64,000 nucleotides of DNA from Gloeomargarita lithophora Alchichica-D10 (lineage in GTDB: Bacteria > Cyanobacteriota > Cyanobacteriia > Gloeomargaritales > Gloeomargaritaceae), in contig NZ_CP017675.1 in the NCBI RefSeq assembly GCF_001870225.1, forward strand, positions 388,697 through 452,696, written 5' to 3'. The notes under the pieces were generated by a model. It had not been told where the DNA came from. It saw only the letters and a list, made by a program, of their open reading frames with translations, and searched no databases. The position numbers were made by a program, and so were the translations under genes. This document shows, one piece after another, positions 23,146-63,973 of this stretch (positions are counted from its first letter, which is position 1; the number at the start of each line of letters is the position of its first letter).

Positions 23146-23255
23146 GGACACCTCTAAAAATAGGTCGCAGGGGCACCGCCCCCGTCATTGGTTCTCAGTA
23201 ATACCGGCATTCTAGCGAGATAACTTTCTGCTGGTTCAAATAAATAGAGGTGTCC
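23146..23255. repeat. Family A inverted-repeat element, copy 3
   Basis: A 110-bp element in the same orientation as copy 1 and close to it in sequence. Ends are GGACACCTCTAAAAATAGG and TTCAAATAAATAGAGGTGTCC. It is flanked by AATTA on both sides (23141-23145 and 23256-23260). It occupies most of the gap between DUF3155 and the next rightward gene. Confidence 0.82.
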
Positions 23256-23318
23256 AATTAGTTCGGCGGGGGTTGCCTATAATAAAGAGATTGATTTCAT
23301 CCTACTTTCCCTGCGACT

Positions 23319-26359: not shown

Positions 26360-26479
26360 GGCGCCTCTATAAATTGAAAATTAGCGGTCGCAGAGGGGCA
26401 CCCCCCGTTCTTGGTTCTCGGTAATATCTGCATTCCAGCCAGATAACTTTCTGCTAGTTGAAATAATATAGAGATGTCC
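26360..26479. repeat. Family A inverted-repeat element, copy 4
   Basis: An element of about 120 bp with diverged ends GGGCGCCTCTATAAATTGAAAA and AATATAGAGATGTCC. It has the usual interior (GCGGTCGCAGAGGGGCA, TTCTCGGTAATATCTGCATTCCAG, AACTTTCTGCTAG). It ends 12 nt before the glmS stop, so it may form part of the glmS 3' untranslated region. Confidence 0.75.
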
Positions 26480-26491
26480 ATAATTTCTAAA

Positions 26492-42640: not shown

Positions 42641-42772
42641 TGCTTGAGAAAAATCAACATTCTATGGTCTTAAAGTACAGTGATAAGAGTTTATATAGAC
42701 ACATCAGTATTTGGCGGAGTCTTTGACAAAGAATTCAAAAATGCAAGTTTATCTTTTTTTGATTTGAGTGAA

Positions 42773-42892
42773 GGACACCTCTATTTATTTGCACCAACAG
42801 AAAATCATCTCGCTGGAATGCCATTATTACCGAGAACCAAGTACGGGGGCTGCGCCCCTGCGACCGCTAATTTTCAATTTATAGAGGTGTCC
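42773..42892. repeat. Family A inverted-repeat element, copy 5, inside the PIN toxin gene
   Basis: A 120-bp element with perfect ends GGACACCTCTAT and ATAGAGGTGTCC. It is flanked by TGAA on both sides (42769-42772 and 42893-42896). The interior has the shared ATCTCGCTGGAATGCC, ATTACCGAGAACCAAG and hairpin segments. Excision with one TGAA restores codons for D-L-S-E-A-G. Confidence 0.9.
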
Positions 42893-45959: not shown

Positions 45960-46406
45960 TTACTCAGGCAAAAAATCCTCATCCAAAACCTGCTCCGCCG
46001 TGAATGGACATTCTAAGGAAAAGGTGGCAATCGTAATCTCAGTTTCCACACTAGCCATTTTTCTGGCTCCTTGATAACAGTGGGCAAATGTTTCTAAAAA
46101 ATGTCGCTTCAAGCTAGGACTGTTTCTAAAGTCTCTGCTCAATCTTTGGCGATGTTCCAATAGGGTTACCCGCCAACTATTAGAACGCTTATTTGGTTGA
46201 TATTTATATTTTAATAGATGTACTAAAATCATTTCTAAATTACTTTCAATACTCTTTTTTTCACTCCTGCCCATAGTTTCGATCTCTTCAATTAGATTTG
46301 CTACATCCAGCTTCTCGAATTTTCCGGTTTTCAACAATTCCGCAGTCTGCTCTAACCACAGATAGAAATCCTGTTCGTATAGGGTGGTGACGGGAGTATT
46401 TGTCAT
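45960..46406 (-). CDS. DUF29 family protein, tandem copy 3
   Basis: The 148-residue protein shows the DUF29 pattern: YEQDFYLWLEQTAELLKTG, KLDVANLIEEIETMGRSEKKSIESNLE, LVHLLKYKYQPNKRSNSWRVTLLEHRQRL. DUF29 is an expanded cyanobacterial family of unknown function. It is the last of three adjacent leftward copies whose N-termini (MTNTP, then TTLYEQDF) and C-termini (CPFTAEQVLDEDFLPE) are identical, while the middle differs. Confidence 0.87.
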   Translation of the reverse strand: MTNTPVTTLYEQDFYLWLEQTAELLKTGKFEKLDVANLIEEIETMGRSEKKSIESNLEMILVHLLKYKYQPNKRSNSWRVTLLEHRQRLSRDFRNSPSLKRHFLETFAHCYQGARKMASVETEITIATFSLECPFTAEQVLDEDFLPE

Positions 46407-46412
46407 GGGAAG

Positions 46413-46859
46413 TTACTCAGGCAAAAAATCCTCATCCAAAACCTGCTCCGCCGTGAACGGACATTCTAAGGGAAAGGTAGCCATGGACATTCCTGTTTCT
46501 TGGACAGCTTTTTTTCGGGCTTTGGTGTAGCATTTGTCCATCACATCTAGTAAGTATGTTCCCAAGCTAGGACTATCCTCTAAAATGTCTTCTAATCGAA
46601 AACGATGTTCTAAAATGCTGAAACGCCAACTATTAGAACGTTTTTCTGACTGATATTTATATTTTAATAAGTGCATCAAAATTACTTCTAAATTGCTTCG
46701 TAAGGCTTGTCTCTGGCTACTACTCATACCTTTTATCTCTTCAAGCAAGTGCCGTACATCCAGCTTCTCGAATTTTCCAGTTTTCAATAATTCTGCAGTC
46801 TGTTCTAACCACAGATAAAAATCCTGCTCGTATAGGGTGGTGACGGGAGTATTTGTCAT
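46413..46859 (-). CDS. DUF29 family protein, tandem copy 2
   Basis: This copy is 148 residues and starts 6 nt after the copy-1 stop. The first 35 residues match copy 3, and residues about 50-78 (SSQRQALRSNLEVILMHLLKYKYQSEKR) match copy 1. The two halves therefore resemble different sisters, as expected after recombination or gene conversion. The segment RHLLEEIKGMSSSQ replaces NLIEEIETMGRSE of copy 3. Function is unknown. Confidence 0.87.
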   Translation of the reverse strand: MTNTPVTTLYEQDFYLWLEQTAELLKTGKFEKLDVRHLLEEIKGMSSSQRQALRSNLEVILMHLLKYKYQSEKRSNSWRFSILEHRFRLEDILEDSPSLGTYLLDVMDKCYTKARKKAVQETGMSMATFPLECPFTAEQVLDEDFLPE

Positions 46860-46865
46860 GGGAAA

Positions 46866-47312
46866 TTACTCTGGCAAAAAATCTTCATCCAAAACCTGCT
46901 CCGCCGTAAATGGACATTCTAAGGGAAAGAGAGTAATTGACATTCCTGTTTCGACACTCGCTAGTTTCCTTGCCCCTTGATAGCAGTAGGCAAATGTTTC
47001 TAAAAAATATCGTCTGAGGCTTGGGCTAAATTGAAATGAATCTTCCAATCTACGCCGATGTTCCAACAAAGTATAACGCCAACTATTAGAACGTTTTTCT
47101 GACTGATACTTATATTTTAATAAGTGCATCAAAATTACTTCTAAATTGCTTCGTAAAGCCTGCTTTTCACTCCTGCCTATAGTTTCGATTTCTTCAATTA
47201 GATTTTCTACATCCAGTTTTTCTAAATGCCCGGATTTTAAGGATGCCACAGTTTCTTCTAACCATAGACAAAAATCCTGCTCATAGAGGGTAGTGATGGG
47301 CGTGTTGGTCAT
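46866..47312 (-). CDS. DUF29 family protein, tandem copy 1
   Basis: This is the promoter-proximal 148-residue copy. Its N-terminus is the most divergent (ITTLYEQDFCLWLEETVASLKSGHLEKLDVENLIEEIETIG), while its centre matches copy 2 and its C-terminus matches both sisters. Starts of the three genes are exactly 453 bp apart, the hallmark of an unequal-crossover triplication. Transcription is leftward as one unit. Confidence 0.87.
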   Translation of the reverse strand: MTNTPITTLYEQDFCLWLEETVASLKSGHLEKLDVENLIEEIETIGRSEKQALRSNLEVILMHLLKYKYQSEKRSNSWRYTLLEHRRRLEDSFQFSPSLRRYFLETFAYCYQGARKLASVETGMSITLFPLECPFTAEQVLDEDFLPE

Positions 47313-48464: not shown

Positions 48465-48568
48465 GGGGCAGGGGATTTATCCAAAAGGGCTTAGTTATCA
48501 TAGCAGGTTGTGATACGAGCTTTGGCCGCAGGGAGGCTACACTAGGGACAACCCCATCCCCAGTGGTT

Positions 48569-50218
48569 ATGGCACCTGCGGAGCATCCCATCACAGGGCA
48601 TACCCTCGTCTGGCAACAACTCAAAAGCGGTCACCTCACCCCCATCGCCGCCCTCGCTTTGCTGGTAGAACCGGATGGAACGGTGAATTTACCCCTGCTC
48701 AACCCGGATGTCAGCCGCCGGTTTTTTCAAAAAGTTATCCCCAACCCCAGTCTGCCAACGGTATTGCCCCTATTGCTCTGGCGCAATTGTTATTACCTGG
48801 GCATTTGTGACCCCCTCACCCCGGAACAGGTTGCTTTTATCAGCAATCGCACCCGCACGGGGATTGAAACCGTAGCCATTCGCCCGGAAAGTTACCGCCA
48901 ATGGTACCGGCAACGCAGCGCCACCACCCCGAATCAAATCACCATTACAGCGATGGTCAACCCCCTCACCGGGGAACTGGATCGGGCGGATGCGGCGGAA
49001 GATGCGGAACTGTACCTGGGTAAGGCGGACAATTCCATCCATCGCATCAACGCCATGCTGGGGGTTGCCCTCAAACACCGCGCCAGCGATATTCACCTGG
49101 AACCGGGCGGGGATGGCCTGCGGGTGCGGTTTCGGATTGATGGGATCATGCGCCCGATTACCACCCTGCCCCCCGCCCTCAGCCGTCCCACGGTAGTCGC
49201 CACCAAAGTCATGGCCGAGATGGATATTGCCGACAGTCGCCGTCCCCACGATGGCCGGATTGGCAAAAAATACCTCAACGATGTGGGCGGGGCGAAAAAT
49301 CTGGATTTGCGGGTGAGTACCCTGCCCTGTGTCGGCGGCGAAAAGGTGGTCATTCGTCTCCTGCCCCAGGAAAATCCCTTTACCAACTTGGAGGATTTGG
49401 GCTTGCATGGCTCGACCCTGGCGACCTACACCCATTGGCTCCACCAACCCCAAGGTCTGGTGATTCTGACCGGGCCGACGGGTTCGGGTAAAACCAGTAC
49501 TTTGTACACCAGTTTGCAACTCATTGCCACGCCGGAAGTGAATGTGACCACGGTGGAAGACCCGGTGGAGTACGTTTTGCCTTACATTACCCAGACCCAG
49601 GTGCATGTGCGGGCGGGGATGACCTTTGCCGCTGGCCTGCGCTCGATTTTACGCCAAGACCCGGACATCATCATGGTGGGGGAAATCCGGGATGGGGAAA
49701 CCGCTGAAACCGTGGTACGGGCGGCCTTAACCGGACATTTGGTGCTGACTACCATGCACACCATTGATGCGGCCACCGCCATTCCTCGCCTGCGGGATTT
49801 GGGACCTGATCCGGGGTTAATCAGCGATGCGTTGTTGGGGGTGGTAGGCCAGCGGTTGGTACGCAAAATTTGCCCCCACTGCACGGCGCCCTACACGCCT
49901 ACGCCGCAGGAGTTGGCCTGGTTGGGACTCACCCCGGAGCATCCCTTAGCGCACCACTGGCAGCGGGGCAAAGGTTGTGACCAGTGTTTGGGAACCGGGT
50001 ATTTGGGGCGGTTGGCGGTGCTGGAGGTGTTGAATGCGGATGACCGGATTCGCCAGTTGGTCTATGGGGGTACGATTGGGGAATTGCGGCGATATTTAGC
50101 GGACATTGATTTTGATTCCTTCCGCAAGGATGGCATCCGCAAAATTAGCCAAGGCTTAACGACGTTGAGTGAAATTCGCCGGGTACTGCCCTACAGCATT
50201 CACCAGTGCGGCGGGTAG
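48569..50218 (+). CDS. PilB/GspE-type secretion or pilus assembly ATPase
   Basis: The 549-residue protein has a short N-terminal domain and the type II/IV assembly ATPase core. Walker A is GPTGSGKTSTLYTSL, the Asp box TTVEDPVEYVLP, Walker B ILRQDPDIIMVGEIRDGETAE and the His box LTGHLVLTTMHTIDA. A CPHC/CDQC zinc site closes it. It is about 100 residues shorter than the usual cyanobacterial PilB because the N-terminus is reduced, so it may be a second, PilB2-like motor. A GTG two codons upstream is possible. No pilC or pilT is adjacent. Confidence 0.88.
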   Translation: MAPAEHPITGHTLVWQQLKSGHLTPIAALALLVEPDGTVNLPLLNPDVSRRFFQKVIPNPSLPTVLPLLLWRNCYYLGICDPLTPEQVAFISNRTRTGIETVAIRPESYRQWYRQRSATTPNQITITAMVNPLTGELDRADAAEDAELYLGKADNSIHRINAMLGVALKHRASDIHLEPGGDGLRVRFRIDGIMRPITTLPPALSRPTVVATKVMAEMDIADSRRPHDGRIGKKYLNDVGGAKNLDLRVSTLPCVGGEKVVIRLLPQENPFTNLEDLGLHGSTLATYTHWLHQPQGLVILTGPTGSGKTSTLYTSLQLIATPEVNVTTVEDPVEYVLPYITQTQVHVRAGMTFAAGLRSILRQDPDIIMVGEIRDGETAETVVRAALTGHLVLTTMHTIDAATAIPRLRDLGPDPGLISDALLGVVGQRLVRKICPHCTAPYTPTPQELAWLGLTPEHPLAHHWQRGKGCDQCLGTGYLGRLAVLEVLNADDRIRQLVYGGTIGELRRYLADIDFDSFRKDGIRKISQGLTTLSEIRRVLPYSIHQCGG

Positions 50219-50270
50219 GATGGCGATGCAGAGATATAGTAATCCGACGTTGCTGAATCTGGGTATGATA

Positions 50271-51203
50271 CTAGAAAAACAGCATAGGGAAAGCATACCA
50301 TCCGGCCAAAATCACAAAGAAAATAGAGAACACATCCAGAACAGTGAGAATAAGAACGCGCTGGATGTCAATCAACGCCCTTTGGTGCAATGTCCAGACG
50401 ACAAATCCAAAGATACAATTCGTGAGCAATGCAGTTCCGAAGAATGGAAGCCATCTTTGCGAAACAGCCAGAAATAGCCACACGGCGGCGAGAATGTGGA
50501 GATATTTCATGGCGCGAATAGTTAATTCACTCCCAAATACCGTTGGGAATGTGCGTCGTCCGGCAAGACTATCGGAGTGAATGTCCCTAATGTCGCCAGC
50601 ATTACAGGCGGGAATCATCCTGAGAAATACGAAGAACGCAAACGCCGCCCCAGCAGTGAGATTAAATTCTGCGGTGAGCACGGCAGGGAAAAGCATTGTT
50701 GCTCCCCATACGGCGGAAACATAGAGCGACTTCACATAGGGAATGTCTTTAGCGCGAAATTGGATGCGGGCAGGAACTCCCGGCAATCGGTTCAGCAGTG
50801 AAAAACTGTAAAAGACTCCAAGCAAAGAAAGAAACGCAAATAGACCCAGAGAATAGATGCGAGTGGGTGGACTCGATGCCAAAGTGATAACTCCAGCCGA
50901 AACAGCAAAGGGAAACCCCGTCAGGAGAAACACGGTAGCACTATTCAAATCCCAAGCTGCAACTCGTTCAGGGGTGTCAAAGTCACTGGCGTTATCTTTC
51001 CATCGGTCAACATTGTAGATGCCCATCATCAAACCGAATGAGAGCAGGAAAATAAGTGATGCCCAGCTCAACGGCACGTCCCGAACAAACGCCGATCCCT
51101 TGGCGAGAACCACGCCCGCCATACCGAGTCCACCGGCGCTAAGACCCGCAACAACACCATACGGCTCCAAATACACCAAACCTCTAAAAATCCATTTCAG
51201 CAT
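50271..51203 (-). CDS. UbiA-like prenyltransferase
   Basis: The 310-residue membrane protein has about eight hydrophobic helices and two Asp-rich motifs in UbiA position: GIYNVDRWKDNASDFD near residue 62 (in place of NDxxDxxxD) and ACNAGDIRDIHSDSLAGRRTFPTVFG near residue 205. UbiA enzymes join a prenyl diphosphate to an aromatic or lipid acceptor in the membrane. It matches none of the standard ones closely by eye (chlG, ubiA, menA, hemO-type). It starts 2 nt after the synthase-like gene stop, so the two form one operon, and base and codon use look different from the neighbours. Confidence 0.7.
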   Translation of the reverse strand: MLKWIFRGLVYLEPYGVVAGLSAGGLGMAGVVLAKGSAFVRDVPLSWASLIFLLSFGLMMGIYNVDRWKDNASDFDTPERVAAWDLNSATVFLLTGFPFAVSAGVITLASSPPTRIYSLGLFAFLSLLGVFYSFSLLNRLPGVPARIQFRAKDIPYVKSLYVSAVWGATMLFPAVLTAEFNLTAGAAFAFFVFLRMIPACNAGDIRDIHSDSLAGRRTFPTVFGSELTIRAMKYLHILAAVWLFLAVSQRWLPFFGTALLTNCIFGFVVWTLHQRALIDIQRVLILTVLDVFSIFFVILAGWYAFPMLFF

Positions 51204-51205
51204 GG

Positions 51206-51796
51206 CTATCGCTTAAGCTCGGTGGTTCGATTTCGGAGCCAGCGATCAGGCAACTCAGCAATCTCCACTCGCATCAAAACCACAGGCGTGTTGGTCAACG
51301 TATAGGCATCCCGGCGGGCAACAGTCCGCATACCAAGGAGTTTCTGGTAAACACGTTCATGGCTGGGATCAAAGATAAACACTGAAGTATCAATGCCATA
51401 GTCCAAATAGTCGTCCACAACGCCTTGAATGAGGGAGAGGACAAGAGGGCGTTGATTTTGGTAACGTTTTTGAGTCGCAATTCGCCATGAGCCTGCAAGA
51501 CGCTTGCCTTCAAGACGAATCAAATCACACTCAGCCTGGAAATCATCGTCCACATGAAGCCCGTGGGGGCTGTCCAATGTCCAACTGATCGTGCCAATGA
51601 TTTCTTCTTCGTACACAGCCACAAGAACGGTCGTCTCCGGGATGGCATCCAAGTGAGCGTTGTAAATCAGAAGACCGTTGGGTTGAGGATCGCAGTACCC
51701 CCCCGCAACAAAGGCATCATGGGTGATTCGATAAACGGCCTCCATCTCACTTTCGTCTTTGACCGGGCGGACAATTGGGTGGATTAGAGGTTCCAT
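51206..51796 (-). CDS. N-acyl amino acid synthase-like protein (FeeM/autoinducer-synthase GNAT fold)
   Basis: The 196-residue protein has the pattern of FeeM-type long-chain N-acyl amino acid synthases. It begins VYRITHDAFVAGGYCDPQPNGLLIYN. ETTVLVAVYEEEIIGTISWTLDSPHGLHVDDDF follows, with SWRIATQKRYQNQRPLV and a conserved-type MRTVARRDAYTL near the end. Such GNAT-fold enzymes transfer fatty acyl groups from acyl-ACP to an amino acid or amine. The substrate is unknown. It is paired with a UbiA-like membrane enzyme 2 nt downstream. It lies on the boundary of an intergenic stretch full of repeats. Confidence 0.68.
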   Translation of the reverse strand: MEPLIHPIVRPVKDESEMEAVYRITHDAFVAGGYCDPQPNGLLIYNAHLDAIPETTVLVAVYEEEIIGTISWTLDSPHGLHVDDDFQAECDLIRLEGKRLAGSWRIATQKRYQNQRPLVLSLIQGVVDDYLDYGIDTSVFIFDPSHERVYQKLLGMRTVARRDAYTLTNTPVVLMRVEIAELPDRWLRNRTTELKR

Positions 51797-52283
51797 GTTG
51801 CTGGCGTATTACTGGCTTGGCTGGTTGGAAGAGAGAAATTCAGAAAACACATAACCATCAAACTCGCTTGCCGTTATTAACTTTGAACGATTTGTATATC
51901 TTAACATAGGGTCAGGTGCAATGATTTGTTATTTTTTCCACTTTACAATTTATTCACCAGTTTGTCATATTATTCAGTGAGAGCCTATTCAAAATCAAAC
52001 GATAGCAATCCGATTTGAATTTTGAAAAACAGGTGCAGGAGCAATGCCCCCGGACTTGTATTTTGCAGAATTTTTGTTTATAAATCCGGTGCGATTGGTA
52101 TATGGCGAGATAATTTTCTATATTACCGACTCAATGCTAAAACATCCGTGAAATAAGAGGACATCTCTATTTAGGACACCTCTATTTATTGGCACCCGCA
52201 GAAAGTCATCTCGCTGGAATGCCGGTATTACTGAGAACCGCTGTAATTGGAAAGCCTGGGTTTTTCAGGAATTTTCTCAACCT
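51797..52283. repeat. Repeat-rich intergenic stretch (family A and B fragments)
   Basis: A family B copy spans about 52003-52100 (TAGCAATCCGATTTGAATTTTG to GCGATTGGTA). About 52128-52146 (ACCGACTCAATGCTAAAAC) is a reverse-complement match to sequence near 2134. Two family A left ends in tandem follow: GGACATCTCTATTTA at 52159 and GGACACCTCTATTTATTGG at 52174. The second runs to about 52240. No gene is visible. The nesting shows repeated insertion at one site. Confidence 0.7.
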
Positions 52284-52994
52284 TCAGCAGTCCGGTGGAG
52301 TTGCTATTTCTGCACCCAAATCCAGTCCACCCTCCTCCCGTTGATACATCGGAATAATATATTGATTGCCAAAGACAAACCGATGGTACAAACCCAACTG
52401 TTCATACACCGCCAGGGGAACCCCCACATCCGCTAGATAAAGTTGGCCGCCGTAGGGCGTTTCCGTCACCGGCAGACCCAACACTAAAGTAGCCGCCGCC
52501 GTGCCATCCAGCATTGCCCCCACCCGCAGGACTTCCGCCCCCGACTCGGCCACCCAGCACCAGATTTCGGGGGGAAGGGGGGTATCACTGCCCACCACAA
52601 CTACCGCCGCTGTTTCCCCGGTTAATTCAGCTAAGTCAACCCTTTGGGCACCGGTTTTTTGATACAAATTGTATTGATTTTGTAAAAACTGGTTATCAAG
52701 AATTTCCGGGTTCAGCCAGACCCGCACGTTCAGACAACGGTTGGCCAAATGCCGGGCGGCACTCAGCACCACCGACCCGGTGACCCCGTTGCCCACCAGC
52801 ACCACCACCCGCCCCACCTGCCAGTCCTCCCCCAACCAGCCCAGGGTGAGCATGGCACCACTACGGCCTGCGGTTTCCACCCACACCGCCTGGGACAAAC
52901 CGGCGTGAGCTACGGATGCCCACCAGCGGGTGACCTGAGCCGGGGTCAAAGTGGGAATGGGCAACCCCGTACTGGTGCAAAATGGCTCGTTCAT
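52284..52994 (-). CDS. YjeF N-terminal (NAD(P)HX epimerase-like) protein, active-site motif altered
   Basis: The 236-residue protein has the Rossmann-like fold of the YjeF N-domain: VVVLVGNGVTGSVVLSAARHLANRCLNVRVWLNPE, where epimerases carry GNNGGDG in the phosphate-binding loop. VVVVGSDTPLPPEIWCWV and LVLGLPVTETPYGG follow. NAD(P)HX epimerases repair hydrated nicotinamide nucleotides. The loop change makes normal epimerase activity doubtful. No C-terminal dehydratase domain is fused. It is divergent from the injection-system cluster. Confidence 0.65.
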   Translation of the reverse strand: MNEPFCTSTGLPIPTLTPAQVTRWWASVAHAGLSQAVWVETAGRSGAMLTLGWLGEDWQVGRVVVLVGNGVTGSVVLSAARHLANRCLNVRVWLNPEILDNQFLQNQYNLYQKTGAQRVDLAELTGETAAVVVVGSDTPLPPEIWCWVAESGAEVLRVGAMLDGTAAATLVLGLPVTETPYGGQLYLADVGVPLAVYEQLGLYHRFVFGNQYIIPMYQREEGGLDLGAEIATPPDC

Positions 52995-53281: not shown

Positions 53282-54988
53282 ATGGCAAGACTAGACTACT
53301 TTGCCCCAGGCGTTTATATCGAGGAAGTCAACCGGGGGAGCCGTCCGATTGAGGGGGTACCGACGGCGGTGGCTGGGTTTGTCGGCTTTACCGAGGATAT
53401 TCGGGGGGGAGCGGAGTATTTGAAACCCACCTTGGTTACCTCTTGGGAGCAGTACACCCAGTATTTTGGGGCACCGGGTTCGGATGGGTTTACGGATTTT
53501 AATGCCTACTTGCCTTTTGCGGTCTATGGCTGGTTTTTGAATGGGGGGGGACGCTGTTGGGTGGCGAGTATTGGTACGCAATTGCCGGGTCAGACGGCCA
53601 GCCCCCGTTTGGAAGCGGGTACGCCCATTTACAATCGGGCGAAACGTCCCACCCTGCGCTTGGTTTTGCGGAGTAATGCCGCCACTGCTCCGGTGCCCAG
53701 CAATTTGAATGGCTTGGCGACCCTGAATGACCGGGGGGTGCGGGTGCGGGTGATGGATAGTCAGCCCAAACCCTTGCCCAGTGGGGAGGGAACCACGATG
53801 GTTTTGACGGCCAATACGGGCGAGTATTTCTCGGTGATGGTCACCCAATCGGGGGAGGTGCTGGAACGGTATGACCACCTGACCATGAATCCCGAAACCG
53901 ACCCCCAGGTGGCGGATTATGTGGTGAATGCCTTGCAGGATTCCCAACTGGTGAGCGTCACGGTGGTTGCCCAGGTGGGGAGTTTCCTGGCGCGCCGTCC
54001 GACCAACGGGGTCTATGAGATTAGCCCGCCGCCTTTGGTGCCCCAGTTGGATACGTTTGCTTGGCAAATGCAGGGCGACCGGGATGACCGCACCGGGGTA
54101 CGGGGTTTACTAGAAATTGACGAAGTGACGATCATGGCCTGCCCGGATTTGATGCGGGCGTACCAGGAAAATTTACTGAATATTGACCAGGTGCATGCGG
54201 TGATGGATTTGATGGTGAGTACCTGTGAGGGTGCCGCCGCCGGGGATTTGCCCAACCCGCCCAATCGGATGGTGGTGCTTGACCCGCCCCCGGATCGCTA
54301 CAAACCCCAGGATATTAGCCAGTGGTTGGGGGAAGAATTTAACCGCCGGTCGGCCTTTGCTGCCCTGTACTACCCCTGGATTTTGGTGCCCAATCCCCGC
54401 AATGCCGGTCGCCCGATTGCGGTGCCCCCCTGCGGTCATGTGATGGGGGTGTGGGCGCGCACGGATGAAACCCGCGGTGTTTATAAAGCCCCGGCCAACG
54501 AAACCCCCAGGGGCGTGCTGGGTCTGGCCTACGATTGCAACTTCCGGGAGCAGGAATTGCTCAACCCCCAGGGGATCAACTGCATTCGCACCTTTCCCAA
54601 CCGGGGGATTCGCATCTGGGGTGCCCGGACGTTGGTGGAGCCGGATATTACGGAATGGCGGTATATCAGCGTGCGGCGGTTGATCAGCTACATCGAAAAA
54701 TCCATCGAGCAGGGCACCCAATGGGTGGTGTTTGAACCCAACGATGAGGATTTGTGGGCGAGGGTCACCCGCACGATTAGCAATTTTTTAACCGGGTTGT
54801 GGCGGCAGGGAGCCTTGATGGGGGAAACTCCGGGGCAGGCTTTTTACGTCAAGTGTGACGGGGATTTGAACACCCCGGAAACCATGATTTTGGGGCGGTT
54901 GTATGTGGAAGTGGGGGTCTGTCCGGTGCGTCCGGCGGAGTTTGTCATCTTCCGCATCAGCCAGTGGACCGGCCAGGATGAAGGGTAA
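53282..54988 (+). CDS. Contractile tail sheath protein
   Basis: The 568-residue protein begins MARLDYFAPGVYIEEVNRGSRPIEGVPTAVAGFVGFTEDI, the standard phage-tail-sheath/eCIS N-terminus (APGVYxEE). Its C-terminal third has the conserved assembly core: RGIRIWGARTLVEPDITEWRYISVRRLISYIEKSIEQGTQWVVFEPND, with GDLNTPETMILGRLYVEVGVCPVRPAEFVIFRI at the end. These strands form the mesh of neighbouring subunits. It is the first gene of the cluster. Cyanobacterial systems of this type include thylakoid-anchored ones, which is family knowledge, not evidence here. Confidence 0.95.
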   Translation: MARLDYFAPGVYIEEVNRGSRPIEGVPTAVAGFVGFTEDIRGGAEYLKPTLVTSWEQYTQYFGAPGSDGFTDFNAYLPFAVYGWFLNGGGRCWVASIGTQLPGQTASPRLEAGTPIYNRAKRPTLRLVLRSNAATAPVPSNLNGLATLNDRGVRVRVMDSQPKPLPSGEGTTMVLTANTGEYFSVMVTQSGEVLERYDHLTMNPETDPQVADYVVNALQDSQLVSVTVVAQVGSFLARRPTNGVYEISPPPLVPQLDTFAWQMQGDRDDRTGVRGLLEIDEVTIMACPDLMRAYQENLLNIDQVHAVMDLMVSTCEGAAAGDLPNPPNRMVVLDPPPDRYKPQDISQWLGEEFNRRSAFAALYYPWILVPNPRNAGRPIAVPPCGHVMGVWARTDETRGVYKAPANETPRGVLGLAYDCNFREQELLNPQGINCIRTFPNRGIRIWGARTLVEPDITEWRYISVRRLISYIEKSIEQGTQWVVFEPNDEDLWARVTRTISNFLTGLWRQGALMGETPGQAFYVKCDGDLNTPETMILGRLYVEVGVCPVRPAEFVIFRISQWTGQDEG

Positions 54989-55001
54989 GGGAGATTAAAT
55001 C

Positions 55002-55511
55002 ATGGTACTCGCCACCACATCCGCCAGTAAGTATTACATCGAGTTTGACGGCCTGACCGAAATGCCCATCAAAAGTGTGGCCGAGGTCAGCTACGACTCG
55101 AAAACCACCGGGTTTGAAAACCCCATCGAATCCACCAAGCAGGGGAAAACCAACCGGCAGACCACCCCCGGCGGGTTTGCCTCCAACCCCTCGATCAAAA
55201 TCGAAGCCTACCTGTGCGGTGACCCCAGTAGCGCCAGCAAAAAGCTCAACCAATGGTTCCAGTCCTGTGTCCCCGCCTCCGACGGGGGGGGAGCCAGTTG
55301 GCGCAACAGCCGCAAAAACGCCTCCATCGTCATCTACGCCCCGGACGGGGACAAGGAAGCGGTGCGCTACAACATTTATGGGGCGTGGATCAAAAGCTAC
55401 GGCATGGCGGATACGGATGCCACCGGGGGCGACCTGGCGGTGGAAACCTACGATTTCGTCTGCGAGCGCATCGAACGGGTGACCAGTAACGCCGGTGCCA
55501 CCGGGACTTAA
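55002..55511 (+). CDS. Inner tube protein 1 (gp19-like tail tube fold)
   Basis: The 169-residue protein (MVLATTSASKYYIEFDGLTEMPIKSVAEVSYDSKTTGFENP, then KIEAYLCGDPSSASKKLNQWFQSC and ASIVIYAPDGDKEAVRYNIYGAWIKSYG) has the T4 gp19/Hcp-like tube pattern. It forms the rigid inner tube inside the sheath. A Shine-Dalgarno AAGGGAG precedes it. It differs from the next two tube genes in having the Gly-rich GGDLAVETYDFVCERIERV end. Confidence 0.88.
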   Translation: MVLATTSASKYYIEFDGLTEMPIKSVAEVSYDSKTTGFENPIESTKQGKTNRQTTPGGFASNPSIKIEAYLCGDPSSASKKLNQWFQSCVPASDGGGASWRNSRKNASIVIYAPDGDKEAVRYNIYGAWIKSYGMADTDATGGDLAVETYDFVCERIERVTSNAGATGT

Positions 55512-55530
55512 CACAGGAGGTTCAGCGATC

Positions 55531-56019
55531 ATGGCGGATACACCGGAATACTTGACCACATCCCGCTACTACTTTGAAATTTCTGGAGGCAGTACCGGCA
55601 GTCAGTCCCTCCTGATTTCCAAATGTAGCGGCGTGAAAATTGACCTGAACGTGGTGGGGGAAGGGATGTCCCTGGGGGTGACCAAGGGGGCGCGTTCCAT
55701 CGTGCAGATCACCCCTGGCTCCACCAAATTCAGCAACGTCACCCTGGAATTTATCATTTCCCAGGAAAACAATGTTCTGCAACAGTGGTTTTGGGCCTGC
55801 CAATCCCACAGCTACGAGGGGGGCGGCACCCAATGGAGCAACAACCGCAACGAATGTTCCCTGGTGTTTTACAAGCAGGACGGGAGCGAAGGGGCGCGGT
55901 TCAACTTCCGGGATGCGATCTGTGCTAAATATAAATCCACGGCCTTAAAACCGGATAGCACGGATTTCTTCAAAGAAACCATCGAAATTGCCCATGCTGG
56001 ACTGGTGCGCGTGACCTAG
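55531..56019 (+). CDS. Inner tube protein 2 (gp19-like)
   Basis: The 162-residue protein (MADTPEYLTTSRYYFEISGGSTGSQSLLISKCSGVKIDLNVV, then STKFSNVTLEFIISQENNVLQQWFWACQSH and DAICAKYKSTALKPDSTDFFKETIEIAHAGLVRV) is a second tube-type protein. The Shine-Dalgarno ACAGGAGG at 55512-55519 fixes the ATG at 55531, and the longer open frame is rejected. Its closer match in the window is tube protein 3, suggesting tandem duplication. Its stop (TAG) is followed directly by the next ATG. Confidence 0.88.
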   Translation: MADTPEYLTTSRYYFEISGGSTGSQSLLISKCSGVKIDLNVVGEGMSLGVTKGARSIVQITPGSTKFSNVTLEFIISQENNVLQQWFWACQSHSYEGGGTQWSNNRNECSLVFYKQDGSEGARFNFRDAICAKYKSTALKPDSTDFFKETIEIAHAGLVRVT

Positions 56020-56511
56020 ATGGCTGGATTTCCCGAAATTCTCACTACTTCGCGCTTTTACGTTGGGTTGTTTCTCAACGGGAGCCAGGAGCCGGTGGAT
56101 GCGTTTTTCCAAGAATGCAAGGGGTTCAAATATACCCAGGAAGTGATTGATGTGTATGAGGTTTCCCCCCAACCCTGGCGCAAGGCGCAGATGGGGCGGA
56201 TTCTCAATACCAAGGTGCCGGGGAATGTCAAACTCAGCAATCTGACCCTAGTCCGCAGTTTGACCACCTCCCAGACCCTTTGGCGGTGGGTGAGTGCGCT
56301 GCAGGAGGGGGAATGGGCGAAACAGCGGCGCAACGGTGCCCTGGTGATTTATACCCAGGAGGCGCGGGAGGGTGCCCGGTTTGTGTTTGAGGGGGCGTGG
56401 CCGACGGGCTACCGGATTTCTGATGTCAAGGCGGCGGGTAAGGATATTGCCATTGAGGAATTGCAGTTGGTGTGCGAGGTGTTTGAGCGGGTGGCACCGG
56501 GGGGTTCGTAA
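56020..56511 (+). CDS. Inner tube or tube-initiator protein 3 (gp19-like)
   Basis: The 163-residue protein (MAGFPEILTTSRFYVGLFLNGSQEPVDAFFQECKGFKYTQEVIDVYEV, then LSNLTLVRSLTTSQTLWRWVSALQEGEW and EELQLVCEVFERV) has the same fold as tubes 1 and 2. In eCIS loci one tube-fold copy forms the shaft, and others form tube-initiator layers at the baseplate. Which role each copy plays here cannot be decided by eye. There is no gap from the preceding gene. Confidence 0.86.
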   Translation: MAGFPEILTTSRFYVGLFLNGSQEPVDAFFQECKGFKYTQEVIDVYEVSPQPWRKAQMGRILNTKVPGNVKLSNLTLVRSLTTSQTLWRWVSALQEGEWAKQRRNGALVIYTQEAREGARFVFEGAWPTGYRISDVKAAGKDIAIEELQLVCEVFERVAPGGS

Positions 56512-56517
56512 ACGCCC

Positions 56518-56832
56518 ATGTTTCCCACCGAGTTTGCATTTCATTTGCCCAAGGGCTATCTGGATGGGGAAGGCCGCCTGCACCAGGACGGGGTGATGCG
56601 GTTGGCGCGGGCGTTGGATGAGATTGTGCCCCTGCGGGACCCCAGGGTGAAGGCCAATCCGGCCTATGCGACGGTGATTATCCTCTCGCGGGTGATTGTG
56701 CACCTGGGGGAACTGCCGGAGATTAACCCGGCGGTGATTGAGGGTTTATTTGCCGCCGATTTGGATTATTTGCAAAAGTTCTACCGGCAAATCAATGGGT
56801 TAACGCCCCTGGAGGTGGATGGTGGCAGGTGA
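56518..56832 (+). CDS. Small eCIS-associated protein (tail assembly protein-like), copy 1
   Basis: The 104-residue protein (MFPTEFAFHLPKGYLDGEGRLHQDGVMRLARALDEIVPL, then VIILSRVIVHLGELPEINPAVIEGLFAADLDYLQKFYRQIN) resembles tail assembly chaperone-like proteins that occupy this position in injection-system and phage loci. The next gene is a paralogue: both share an F-LP-GY start, an H-Q-G-MR step, an R-ILSRVI/ARLARGLV helix and the closing DxxYLQxFYxxIN. Overlap with it is 14 nt. Function is inferred from position. Confidence 0.72.
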   Translation: MFPTEFAFHLPKGYLDGEGRLHQDGVMRLARALDEIVPLRDPRVKANPAYATVIILSRVIVHLGELPEINPAVIEGLFAADLDYLQKFYRQINGLTPLEVDGGR

Positions 56833-57172
56833 TACCGGGGTTTATATCTATGAATTTACCCTGCCCCTGGGCTATGGGGATGACCGGGGGCAACGGCACC
56901 AAATCGGGGGGATGCGGCCTTTGACCGGGGGGGATGAGTACTGGTTGGACACCCAACGGGAATGGGGGCAAGGGGGGGGCATGGTGGCGCGCCTGGCGCG
57001 GGGGCTGGTGCGGTTGGGGACGTTGGCGGCGATTAGCCCAGTGCATCTGGAACAGTTTTGGCTGGTGGATTTTGTTTACATTCAGCATATTTACCAAAAA
57101 ATCAACCCGCCGGAGGTACATTTTCTGGGGGAGTGGCGGGCTACCCCCTGGCGCAGTTGCACCGGGAGGTAG
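56819..57172 (+). CDS. Small eCIS-associated protein (tail assembly protein-like), copy 2
   Basis: The 117-residue protein (YEFTLPLGYGDDRGQRHQIGGMRPLTGGDEYWLDTQREW, then ARGLVRLGTLAAISPVHLEQFWLVDFVYIQHIYQKINPPEV) is a divergent paralogue of the gene just upstream. ATG 56819 has a strong Shine-Dalgarno (GGAGG, 56811). Its C-terminus overlaps the next small gene by 40 nt. Such two-copy small proteins may be chaperones for the sheath/tube or baseplate. Confidence 0.7.
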   Translation: MVAGDTGVYIYEFTLPLGYGDDRGQRHQIGGMRPLTGGDEYWLDTQREWGQGGGMVARLARGLVRLGTLAAISPVHLEQFWLVDFVYIQHIYQKINPPEVHFLGEWRATPWRSCTGR

Positions 57173-57288
57173 CGGTGCTGGGCTATCACTTCCACTGGCC
57201 TTTGGGGGAAATTCTGGCCTTACCCCACCGGGAACGCCAACGCTGGGTGCGGGAATTGGCGCAACTGCGGGGGGAAGTTAGCCCATGA
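57133..57288 (+). CDS. 51-residue eCIS-associated protein
   Basis: A GTG at 57133 preceded by GGGGGAG gives MAGYPLAQLHREVAVLGYHFHWPLGEILALPHRERQRWVRELAQL. This matches short proteins of about 50 residues seen in eCIS loci, with the W-P-LGEILALPHRERxRWV helix. The start is inside the preceding gene (40-nt overlap), and the stop overlaps the next ATG (ATGA). The alternative ATG at 57058 would add a non-conserved extension. The product resembles a DUF6760-type family, but I hold that name loosely. Confidence 0.68.
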   Translation: MAGYPLAQLHREVAVLGYHFHWPLGEILALPHRERQRWVRELAQLRGEVSP

Positions 57289-58595
57289 GCAATTACCTGG
57301 GGATTGCCACGGTGACGGCGACTCTGCAACGCTTGCTGCAAGGGTCGGTGCAGTTGGATGTGGCGGGGGCTAGGGTCACCACCGTCCGCCCGGAAACCCT
57401 GGGGCAGGGGGGCACCCCGGAGGCGGGGGTGAATTTATTTTTGTACCAAATTTCCCCCAACCCGGCCTGGGCGAACAACAATATCCCGCCCCGCCAGCGC
57501 AAGGGGGAGGTGACCAAGCGGGGACAGGCGCCCCTGGATTTGCATTACCTGCTGAGTTTCTACGGCAATGAGGTGGAACTGGAACCCCAACGCCTGCTGG
57601 GGAGCGTGGTGCGGACGTTGGAGGACTTTGCCATCCTCACCCCCCAGATGCTCGCCCAGACCATCCAAGACCCGGGGTTTCCCTACCTGGAGGGGGCGGA
57701 TTTGGCGGACCAAAACGAGTTGGTGAAAGCCGAACCCCTGAATTTGGAATTGAACGACTTGGCGAACCTCTGGAGTACGTTTTTCCAGGCACCCTATATT
57801 TTGTCAATGGCCTACAAGGTTTCCGTGGTCTTGATCGAAGGGGAAGAACCGGGGCGCAGGGCGTTGCCGGTGCGTTCCCAACGCTCTGTTACCCAGGCGT
57901 TTAATCAACAGCCGGTGATTGTGCAGGTGCGCCATCGGTTGGGAGCACGGGAACCAGTCACTCGCAGTAGTCCTTTGCTGATCCTGGGGCGCAATCTCCA
58001 GGGGGGGAGTCGGGTGCAGGTGCGCCTGGGGGAAATTCTCGTGACCCCGCAGGAACTGAGTTCTACCCAAATTGCTTTGGATTTGAGCCAGATTGAAAAT
58101 CTCCCCGCCGGGATGTTGGGGGTACAGGTGGTGCATATTCCCGCCCCCCAGCAGGAACGGGGGGAATTGGGGGTGGGGGAAAATTTGCAAACCGTGCCCC
58201 GCCCGCCCCGGGTGCCCTGGGTGGAATCGAACGTGGAAGCCCTGATCCTGCGTCCCACGGTGGTTGACCTGGAAACCGCCCCCCTGCCCCCGGCGGTCAA
58301 CGGTGCCAGCCGTTACCGTATTGCAATAACCACGGATGTGCCCATCCAGCCCACGCAAAAAGTGGTACTAGTACTGAACCAACGGGCGGTGAGCGCACCG
58401 GCACTGTACCTATTTGATAGCGAACCCCACGCTACGGTCAGCACCACCATTGAAGTCATTGGGCAAGGGCTACAATCGGGGCATTACCTGGCGCGGCTAA
58501 TGGTGGCGGGGGCGGAAAGTTTACTCACCGTGGATACCGACCCGGATAGCCCCACCTTTGAGCAGTACATTGCCCCCTTGGTGGTGATTCCCTAA
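57285..58595 (+). CDS. DUF4255-domain protein (Pvc16/Afp16-like tube terminator)
   Basis: The 436-residue protein starts MSNYLGIATVTATLQRLLQ, and a DUF4255 domain covers about residues 5-195: VDVAGARVTTVRPE-type segment, FLYQISPNPAWANNNIPPRQRKG, then PLDLHYLLSFYGNEVELEPQRLLGS. The C-terminal part has IPT/TIG-like Ig strands (RSSPLLILGRNLQGGSRVQVRLG) and a beta tail. In R-type and antifeeding systems this family caps the distal tube and stops sheath growth. It overlaps the preceding gene by 4 nt. Confidence 0.88.
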   Translation: MSNYLGIATVTATLQRLLQGSVQLDVAGARVTTVRPETLGQGGTPEAGVNLFLYQISPNPAWANNNIPPRQRKGEVTKRGQAPLDLHYLLSFYGNEVELEPQRLLGSVVRTLEDFAILTPQMLAQTIQDPGFPYLEGADLADQNELVKAEPLNLELNDLANLWSTFFQAPYILSMAYKVSVVLIEGEEPGRRALPVRSQRSVTQAFNQQPVIVQVRHRLGAREPVTRSSPLLILGRNLQGGSRVQVRLGEILVTPQELSSTQIALDLSQIENLPAGMLGVQVVHIPAPQQERGELGVGENLQTVPRPPRVPWVESNVEALILRPTVVDLETAPLPPAVNGASRYRIAITTDVPIQPTQKVVLVLNQRAVSAPALYLFDSEPHATVSTTIEVIGQGLQSGHYLARLMVAGAESLLTVDTDPDSPTFEQYIAPLVVIP

Positions 58596-58610
58596 TCCCC
58601 AGATGGCTGA

Positions 58611-60578
58611 GTGATAGATTGGGCAACTATGGATGGGGCAACTATGGATTGGGCAACCTGGAACCGGCAATTTCTGGAATCGCATTTGCGCCAGGTTCGG
58701 CAATGCCTAGAACGGGCGGAACCCTCTCCGCCATCCCCCCTGGCGCATTTACACCTGCACCTGACCACCGCCCAATATGTACTGCAAACCGCCCTACACG
58801 GTGCCCCCGCCCTGGAGCGGCTAGGGTTAATTTTTGGCCTCACCCCCTTTGAAGTCGCCGTGCTGGTGCTGGGTGCGGGGATGGAATTGGAAGCCACCTG
58901 GTCTCCCCTGTGCGCCCAAGCCCAGGGCGACCCCCAGCGCAACTATCCCACCCCCGCCCTCGCTTTGAAATGCTTGCCCCAGCCCCACTGGAGTGCCTTT
59001 ACGCCCGCCGCCCCCCTGCGCTATTGGCAGTTGATCCATCTGGGTAATGGAAGTACGTTGTCCACCAGTTCCTTACGCCTGGACGAACAAATTTTGCATT
59101 ACCTGCTGGGGTTAAATTACTTGGATACCCCCTTGATGCACCTGGTACAACCCGTTGCCACCGCCCATCCCCTTGCCCCGTCCCACCAGGATTTAGCCCA
59201 GCACCTGCAAAAACTCTGGCAAACCAACCCCCGGCAAAGCCTGATTATCTGTGGTGCCGACCGAGCCACCCGGCGGGATTTGGTGCATCAGGCCTGTCAC
59301 CCCCAGGGCTATGAATTGTGGCAGGCACCCGCGGCTGTATTTGCCGCCCCCCCCAAGGAAATGGCACCCCTGCTCCATCGCTGGCAGCGGCAGGCGCAAC
59401 TCACCCCGGCGGTTTTGCTCATCGAAGGCGATGCCCTAGGTGAAAAAGAGCAAATGTTAGGACAATATGTGCAAAACAACCCGACACCAATCATTCTCAG
59501 TACCCCCGATCGTCCCGCCTGGCCGGGCAATACCCTGCTGATTTTAGAAGCCCAGGCTCTAACCTTGGCGGAACAACGGCAACTCTGGCAGGAACTCTGG
59601 GGACAAAAATTGCCGCCCCGCACAATTGACAGCTTGGTGTGGCAATTTCAACTCAACCGCAGTCAAATTACCCACATTAGCCAGACAGTTATGGGGGATC
59701 AAACCATTACCCCAGAGGCACTGCCGCCAAAACTCTGGTCCGCCTGTCGCCGTCAATCCCGCACGACCCTGAGTGATTTGGCGCAACGATTAAACACGCA
59801 AGCGAGCTGGGATGACCTGGTGTTACCAGCGGCACAATTGCATATTCTCAAAGAACTCATGGCGCAGGTACGCCAACGGGCGACGGTCTATGAAACCTGG
59901 GGCATGGGGGGTAAAACCGGGCGGGGACTGGGGCTAAGCGTGTTATTTGCCGGGCCGAGTGGTACGGGGAAAACCCTGGCCGCCGATGTGTTGGCGCACG
60001 AATTGGGGTTGGATTTGTACCGGATTGATTTAAGCGCCGTAGTTAGTAAGTACATTGGCGAGACAGAAAAAAATCTGCGCCGGGTCTTCGATGCCGCCGA
60101 AATGAGTGGGGCGGTGTTGCTCTTTGACGAGGCCGATGCCCTATTTGGCAAACGCAGTGAGGTGAAAGACTCCCACGACCGCTACGCCAATATCGAGGTG
60201 GGTTATCTGCTCCAGCGCATGGAAGCCTACCGGGGCTTGGCGATTCTCACCACCAATTTGAAAGATGCCCTGGATGCGGCTTTTTTGCGGCGGATTCGCT
60301 ACATTGTCCGGTTTCCCTTTCCCGATGCCAGCCAACGGGCGGAGATTTGGCGGCGTTCGTTTCCCGCCCAGACCCCCACCCAGGGGCTGGATTATCTCAA
60401 ACTGGCGCAGTTGGGAGTCGCCGGGGGCAATATCCGCAATATCGCCCTAAATGCCGCTTTTTTGGCCGCCGATCACGGGGAACCCCTGCAAATGCGCCAT
60501 CTTTTGCTGGCCGCCCGCAGTGAGTATATTAAATTAGAAAAACCCCTCACCGATGCGGAAGTCCGGGGCTGGGTGTGA
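58611..60578 (+). CDS. AAA+ ATPase of the contractile injection system (Afp15/Pvc15-like)
   Basis: The 655-residue protein has an N-terminal helical half and a C-terminal AAA+ domain (about 415-650). Walker A is LFAGPSGTGKTLAADVLAHELG, Walker B VLLFDEADALFGKRSEV, sensor 1 LAILTTNLKDALDAAFLRR with arginine finger candidates. CIS loci carry one such ATPase, proposed to help assembly or release. The GTG at 58611 or ATGs within the first twelve codons could start it. The first 15 codons are three in-frame 15-nt repeats coding D-(W/G)-A-T-(M/W). It is the last recognisable gene of the cluster. Confidence 0.9.
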   Translation: MIDWATMDGATMDWATWNRQFLESHLRQVRQCLERAEPSPPSPLAHLHLHLTTAQYVLQTALHGAPALERLGLIFGLTPFEVAVLVLGAGMELEATWSPLCAQAQGDPQRNYPTPALALKCLPQPHWSAFTPAAPLRYWQLIHLGNGSTLSTSSLRLDEQILHYLLGLNYLDTPLMHLVQPVATAHPLAPSHQDLAQHLQKLWQTNPRQSLIICGADRATRRDLVHQACHPQGYELWQAPAAVFAAPPKEMAPLLHRWQRQAQLTPAVLLIEGDALGEKEQMLGQYVQNNPTPIILSTPDRPAWPGNTLLILEAQALTLAEQRQLWQELWGQKLPPRTIDSLVWQFQLNRSQITHISQTVMGDQTITPEALPPKLWSACRRQSRTTLSDLAQRLNTQASWDDLVLPAAQLHILKELMAQVRQRATVYETWGMGGKTGRGLGLSVLFAGPSGTGKTLAADVLAHELGLDLYRIDLSAVVSKYIGETEKNLRRVFDAAEMSGAVLLFDEADALFGKRSEVKDSHDRYANIEVGYLLQRMEAYRGLAILTTNLKDALDAAFLRRIRYIVRFPFPDASQRAEIWRRSFPAQTPTQGLDYLKLAQLGVAGGNIRNIALNAAFLAADHGEPLQMRHLLLAARSEYIKLEKPLTDAEVRGWV

Positions 60579-63866: not shown

Positions 63867-63973
63867 GAACACCCTCTATTTATATCAGCAGAAAGTTATC
63901 TCGCCGGAATCCCGGTGTTACTGAGAACCAAGTTCGGGGGCGGTGACCCGGCGACCTATTTTTAGAGCTGTCC
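63867..63973. repeat. Family A inverted-repeat element, copy near the right window edge
   Basis: An element of about 107 bp with worn ends GAACACCCTCTATTTAT and TTTTTAGAGCTGTCC and the usual interior (ATCTCGCCGGAATCCC, TACTGAGAACCAAG, GGGGGCGGTGACCCGGCGACC). No clear flanking duplication is visible. Confidence 0.7.

What the first reader, a model, noticed from the sequence alone, without database searches (positions are those of the whole stretch)
50271..51796. Two-gene cassette: N-acyl amino acid synthase-like plus UbiA-like enzyme
The genes are 2 nt apart and probably one transcript. The first has a FeeM-type pattern (RITHDAFVAGGY) and the second has UbiA-type Asp motifs. Together they could make a prenylated or acylated lipid signal. 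Their base and codon use differs by eye from neighbours, and element fragments lie on the upstream side, with a family B-like TATAGTAATCCGA near 50237 on the other.
Basis: inference. Interest (0 to 1): 0.66.

Follow-up and report, generated by a model that had tools for sequence, protein, structure and literature searches.

The report
Foreign acyltransferase–prenyltransferase gene pair
A cyanobacterium carries a horizontally acquired two-gene operon made of a UbiA-type membrane prenyltransferase and a FeeM-like acyltransferase whose nearest known relatives are carried by bacterial viruses and which, like them, lacks the glutamate that known enzymes of this family need, so it probably does different chemistry from the named family.

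Summary
Two genes, 2 nt apart on the minus strand, match Pfam FeeM (3.4e-30) and UbiA (4.2e-12). Both are absent from six same-genus genomes, their codon use is atypical, and dispersed repeats flank them. The UbiA 3' end runs into half of a 106-bp MITE-like repeat, and left-flank synteny with two same-genus genomes breaks just after the neighbouring gene.

The predicted fold is FeeM's (Z 22.2 to 2g0b). But the catalytic glutamate (FeeM Glu95), present in 8 of 8 homologues I treated as canonical, is Gly here. Eight viral contigs in IMG/VR carry relatives (28-48% identity) with Ser/Ala there. All nine share a signature: His81 and Trp-Arg-Ile at 104-106. No relative turned up in two narrow scans of 84,980 cellular species, in 386 sampled cyanobacteria, or in 50,697 phage records, and PHROGs has no model for the two members tested.

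So this is a divergent, mostly virus-borne subfamily of the FeeM fold, here coupled to a YNxDR-type UbiA enzyme. A joint acylated and prenylated product is possible but not shown; none of the six viral contigs checked carries UbiA. Best verdict: a laterally acquired lipid-modifying operon, a new variant of a known kind.

The parts
51206..51796 (-). FeeM-like GNAT-fold acyltransferase of a virus-associated subfamily; first gene of the operon; Gly102 in place of the catalytic Glu; signature His81, Ser103-Trp104-Arg105-Ile106
   Evidence: Pfam PF21926 3.4e-30; AF2 model pLDDT 88.9 matching 2g0b FeeM at Z 22.2, 2.6 A over 175 residues; residue columns
50271..51203 (-). UbiA-family membrane prenyltransferase, YNxDRxxD type, both Asp motifs intact (YNVDRWKD; DIRDIHSDSLAGRRTFP); last codons FPMLFF* derive from a repeat element
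   Evidence: Pfam PF01040 4.2e-12; alignment with cyanobacterial YNxDR homologues; element boundary
50246..50292 (+). First half of a ~106-bp MITE-like repeat (GACGTTGCTGAATCTGGG...TCAGCAACGCC); the foreign DNA is joined into its interior
   Evidence: About 10 genomic copies aligned
50235..50247 (+). TATAGTAATCCGA repeat-like motif between the T2SSE gene and the MITE end
   Evidence: Exact match; 7 matches with up to 2 mismatches in the window against 0.55 expected
51797..52001 (-). AT-rich upstream region of the operon; presumed promoter region and right border of the foreign segment
   Evidence: Sequence; repeats resume at 52002; inference
52168..52239 (+). Copy of a ~70-bp dispersed repeat with about 40 genomic copies
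48563..50218 (+). Left flank: T2SSE/PilB-like ATPase, syntenic with two same-genus genomes up to 50213, where synteny breaks
   Evidence: Pfam PF00437 5e-114
52284..52994 (-). Right flank: YjeF_N-domain protein found in all 7 genomes of the genus, but next to different genes in the five whose surroundings were fetched

Best explanation
A laterally acquired two-gene operon joined by non-homologous recombination into a repeat-rich junction. Gene 1 is a soluble GNAT-fold acyltransferase with FeeM architecture, from a divergent subfamily otherwise seen only in virus contigs. Gene 2 is an integral-membrane UbiA-family prenyltransferase. Most likely mechanism (inferred): gene 1 transfers an acyl group from an acyl carrier to a small amine or other nucleophile without the usual general-base glutamate, perhaps using the subfamily-invariant His81 or substrate-assisted catalysis. 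Gene 2 transfers an isoprenyl chain, through its two Asp motifs with Mg2+, to an acceptor in the membrane. Being co-transcribed, the two probably act in one small lipid-modification or lipid-signal pathway. Shown: sequences, operon layout, fold, loss of the Glu, species-restricted presence, repeat junction. Inferred: co-transcription, chemistry, shared pathway, viral source.
For: Families. Confident FeeM fold, next-best AHL synthases such as LasI; the subfamily profile hits only FeeM in PDB, 4.5e-10. Absent from congeners. Codon bias. Repeat junction and synteny break. Eight viral contigs with the same signature; phage context: portal (L087), portal and terminase (L092), endolysin and terminase (L094), ThyX and sigma factor (L095), integrase and primase (L106). 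In the tree the window protein pairs with phage L086 (84/84) inside the virus clade (93/97). E103A in Nas354 abolishes activity and matches FeeM Glu95 (PMC4897644), a position that is G/S/A in all nine members.
Against: No substrate or product evidence. None of the six viral contigs searched carries UbiA, so the pairing is known only here. The UbiA model was poor (pLDDT 48.8) and its closest relatives found are only 26-34% identical. Cellular-genome scans used narrow peptide patterns, so cellular relatives may exist unseen. The UbiA C-terminus was altered by the junction, so decay cannot be excluded.
Confidence: 0.5

Rival explanations
1. [quoted passage not shown]
For: Pfam FeeM hit and FeeM fold; FeeM-like Thr69, Asp75, Leu80, Arg94, Pro144, Tyr150 largely conserved.
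Against: The catalytic Glu, in 8 of 8 canonical homologues, is Gly here and Ser/Ala in all relatives; Glu-to-Ala in Nas354 abolished its hemolytic and surface-active phenotypes (PMC4897644). No paper in the library links NAS with UbiA.
Confidence: 0.2
2. A stray viral (moron-type) gene that landed beside an unrelated UbiA gene. Gene 1 has a virus-specific role, such as acylating a host molecule or virion component, and no biochemical link with gene 2.
For: All 8 relatives found are in viral contigs, several beside tail, lysis or terminase genes, with no UbiA in the six contigs searched.
Against: The 2-nt spacing and similar codon bias of both genes suggest they arrived or evolved together.
Confidence: 0.2
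3. A decaying horizontally acquired fragment with no present function.
For: UbiA 3' end fused to a MITE; surrounded by repeats; catalytic Glu absent.
Against: Both frames fully open; both UbiA Asp motifs intact, with the protein reaching slightly past its homologues' C-termini; the Gly position matches a subfamily-wide pattern rather than a private mutation.
Confidence: 0.1

Closest known systems
[quoted passage not shown] FeeM 2g0b, Nas343/Nas354)
   Same: Same GNAT-derived fold over the whole chain (Z 22.2, 24% identity), Pfam match, conserved Thr69, Asp75, Leu80 and Arg94, Pro144, Tyr150
   Different: Catalytic Glu replaced by Gly/Ser/Ala; own signature His81 and (S/A)WRI; scores 82-105 bits against 102-155 for canonical plasmid-borne members
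Acyl-homoserine lactone synthases (LasI, TofI, RpaI, BjaI)
   Same: Second-best structural matches (Z about 16-17)
   Different: 12-16% identity. The Glu that AHL synthases carry at this strand position (my knowledge, not aligned here) is missing
Phage-encoded AHL-synthase-like genes (roseophage R26L gp44, PMC11981692; RDJL Phi 2)
   Same: Phage-borne GNAT-fold autoinducer-synthase-like proteins
   Different: RDJL Phi 2 protein 12% identical by structure; no sequence match in INPHARED phages (one search gave only a weak tailspike hit)
YNxDR-type UbiA-like proteins of other cyanobacteria (L098-L102)
   Same: YNxDRxxD and RDxxxDxxxG motifs
   Different: 26-34% identity; no FeeM-like gene seen among the ORFs within about 1.5 kb
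Stieleriacine (N-acyl tyrosine) clusters of Planctomycetes (PMC7293339)
   Same: Clustered NAS genes for acylated amino acid signals
   Different: Linked to PEP-CTERM/exopolysaccharide genes; UbiA is not mentioned in the paper

Membership tests
[quoted passage not shown]
   PF21926 105.4 bits, cut-off 27
[quoted passage not shown]
   AF2 pLDDT 88.9; Z 22.2, rmsd 2.6 A, 175 residues
[quoted passage not shown]
   Gly102 here; G/S/A in 9 of 9 subfamily members, E in 8 of 8 canonical homologues; role from PMC4897644
[quoted passage not shown]
   Needs expression and metabolite analysis
UbiA prenyltransferase superfamily | Match to the curated family profile | tested here: met
   PF01040 46.3 bits, cut-off 34.2, profile 8-236 of 250
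UbiA prenyltransferase superfamily | Two Asp-rich prenyl-diphosphate/Mg motifs | tested here: met
   DRWKDNASD and DIRDIHSD aligned with homologues
UbiA prenyltransferase superfamily | Helical transmembrane bundle fold | tested here: inconclusive
   All-helical single-sequence model of low confidence, pLDDT 48.8
AHL synthase | Closest structure or profile is a LuxI-type enzyme | tested here: not met
   FeeM is clearly closer (Z 22.2 vs 17.3; profile hits only FeeM)

The most novel reading that the evidence does not exclude
The nine proteins form an undescribed, mainly virus-borne acyltransferase family that has kept the FeeM/autoinducer-synthase fold but rebuilt the catalytic site (Glu lost, His81 and Trp-Arg-Ile fixed). 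Diverse tailed phages use it to acylate a host metabolite or signal. A cyanobacterium has domesticated one copy and wired it to a prenyltransferase to make a new doubly lipidated metabolite.
Probability: 0.2. Interest if true: 0.78.

Novelty: new variant of a known kind. Interest (0 to 1): 0.52.

Why it matters
It turns a single odd gene pair into a family. Phages of widely differing base composition (33-63% GC) carry a FeeM-fold enzyme without the glutamate thought essential, which makes the question 'what do these folds do without that residue' directly testable. If active, it extends the small set of phage genes that may tamper with acyl-lipid signalling and offers a new candidate pathway in a species of this cyanobacterial genus.

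Tried and rejected
Single-protein scans of genome contigs and viral contigs for the FeeM-like protein found nothing, nor did a viral scan for UbiA. A four-sequence NAS alignment was too diverse to scan. Plasmid searches gave only remote NAS homologues and none for UbiA. PHROGs had no real match for the window proteins or L086. An Acinetobacter phage tailspike hit (E 0.006) was rejected: Pfam saw no FeeM domain in it. No right-hand half of the MITE was found on the FeeM-like side, so I found no sign of a passenger carried between two element ends. Rfam gave only a sub-threshold hit, Lambda_thermo E 0.18, taken as chance.

Full report
Observation. Two ORFs lie on the minus strand at the stated coordinates. 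The upstream one in transcription order (51206-51796, 196 aa) matches Pfam FeeM PF21926 at 3.4e-30; the downstream one (50271-51203, 310 aa) matches UbiA PF01040 at 4.2e-12. The junction reads TAG-CC-ATG, so the gap is 2 nt and coupled expression is likely (inference). Pfam and alignment results are far beyond chance.

Genome and species-level context. The window lies in a 3.05-Mb single-contig cyanobacterial genome. The genome size and content suggest Gloeomargarita; that name, and the phylum, are my inference and were not tested. Neither protein has a relative in the six other genomes of the genus, and in 39 relatives only one weak UbiA match appears. Among 386 genomes of the phylum the subfamily profile finds nothing beyond this genome, apart from a marginal hit at E 0.0095, and UbiA finds only remote matches. 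GC (49-51%) and codon use are atypical against most neighbours. The left flank (T2SSE/PilB-like gene) is syntenic with two congeners up to position 50213 and then stops. The right flank (YjeF_N) exists in all congeners but next to other genes where I could look. The pair is therefore not core genome.

Junction. The sequence 50246-50292 is the first half of a roughly 106-bp MITE-like repeat with complementary ends (GACGTTGCTGA...TCAGCAACGCC) present in about ten copies. In this copy the second half is missing and UbiA coding sequence begins inside it, so the last UbiA codons (FPMLFF, stop) are repeat-derived. UbiA is nevertheless full length by comparison with homologues. On the other side, repeat fragments start at 52002, and a roughly 70-bp repeat with about 40 genomic copies covers 52168-52239. 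The missing half of the MITE is not on that side, so I read this as non-homologous joining in a repeat-rich junction rather than a passenger between two element ends.

The FeeM-like protein. An AlphaFold2 model (pLDDT 88.9) matches the FeeM crystal structure best by a wide margin (Foldseek 1.4e-15; Z 22.2 over 175 residues), followed by AHL synthases. FeeM is also the only PDB sequence hit, for the single protein (1.8e-4) and for the nine-member profile (4.5e-10). The active-site glutamate of type I NAS enzymes, FeeM Glu95, whose counterpart Glu103 in Nas354 was shown by mutation to be needed (PMC4897644), falls on Gly102 in an ungapped, well-flanked stretch (LAGSWRIA against LAEVVQFA). I identified Glu95 with the Glu at index 96 of the PDB chain sequence, assuming a one-residue offset; it is the Glu present in all eight homologues I treated as canonical.

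Relatives. A degenerate scan of IMG/VR found L086 at 49% identity, and successive alignments found seven more contigs (L087, L092, L093, L094, L095, L105, L106). Some loci (L091, L096, L097, L104, L107-L109) are further views of the same contigs. Phage hallmarks lie in five of these contigs: portal (L087), portal and terminase (L092), endolysin and terminase (L094), ThyX and sigma factor (L095), integrase, ParB and primase (L106). L086, L093 and L105 rest more on the IMG/VR classification. GC runs from 33% to 63%. All eight match PF21926. In all nine proteins the Glu position is Gly, Ser or Ala; residue 81 is His (Pro/Val/Ala in canonical enzymes); residues 104-106 are Trp-Arg-Ile. In a tree the window protein pairs with L086 inside the virus clade (supports 84/84 and 93/97, moderate). 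A closely similar two-pattern query found no relatives in genome contigs; those patterns are narrow, so 'virus-only' is provisional.

The UbiA protein. It carries YNVDRWKD and GDIRDIHSDSLAGRRTFP, matching the two Asp motifs of a YNxDR-type UbiA group in other cyanobacteria (26-34% identity). Its single-sequence model is unusable. None of the six viral contigs searched contains UbiA, while all 14 control genomes do.

Function. Shown: operon layout, families, fold, altered active site, species-restricted presence with a foreign signature. Inferred: the first enzyme transfers an acyl group by a mechanism not using Glu95, with His81 as a candidate replacement; the second prenylates an acceptor; and both serve one lipid-modifying path. 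The rivals (ordinary NAS, unrelated neighbours, decay) are listed with their tests. No paper found in the library links FeeM-type enzymes to UbiA or describes them in phages. AHL-synthase-like phage genes are known (PMC11981692; RDJL Phi 2 model) but appear to be different proteins.

Noticed in passing
window 52168-52239; also 984-1055, 23190-23261, 26413-26483, 42772-42838, 63888-63929: A ~70-bp dispersed repeat with about 40 genomic copies at around 90% identity; no Rfam match in the 52168-52239 copy.
   Followed up: partly
window 45960-47312: Three tandem DUF29 genes of low GC (39%); two tandem copies at the syntenic place in two same-genus genomes.
   Followed up: no
window 53282-60578: Contractile injection or tail-like module (sheath, tube proteins) starting 1.5 kb from the pair; no substantial DNA-level match in the six same-genus genomes, so possibly another species-specific block.
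   Followed up: no
L070 2917-5841 (Nitratidesulfovibrio vulgaris plasmid): A fusion of a canonical FeeM domain with ThiF and nitroreductase domains in one 974-aa protein.
   Followed up: no
L052 7095-8225, L053 1922-3076: FeeM-profile proteins with long C-terminal extensions, in a genome of another class of the same phylum; the catalytic Glu position is Val or Phe, another Glu-less group.
   Followed up: no
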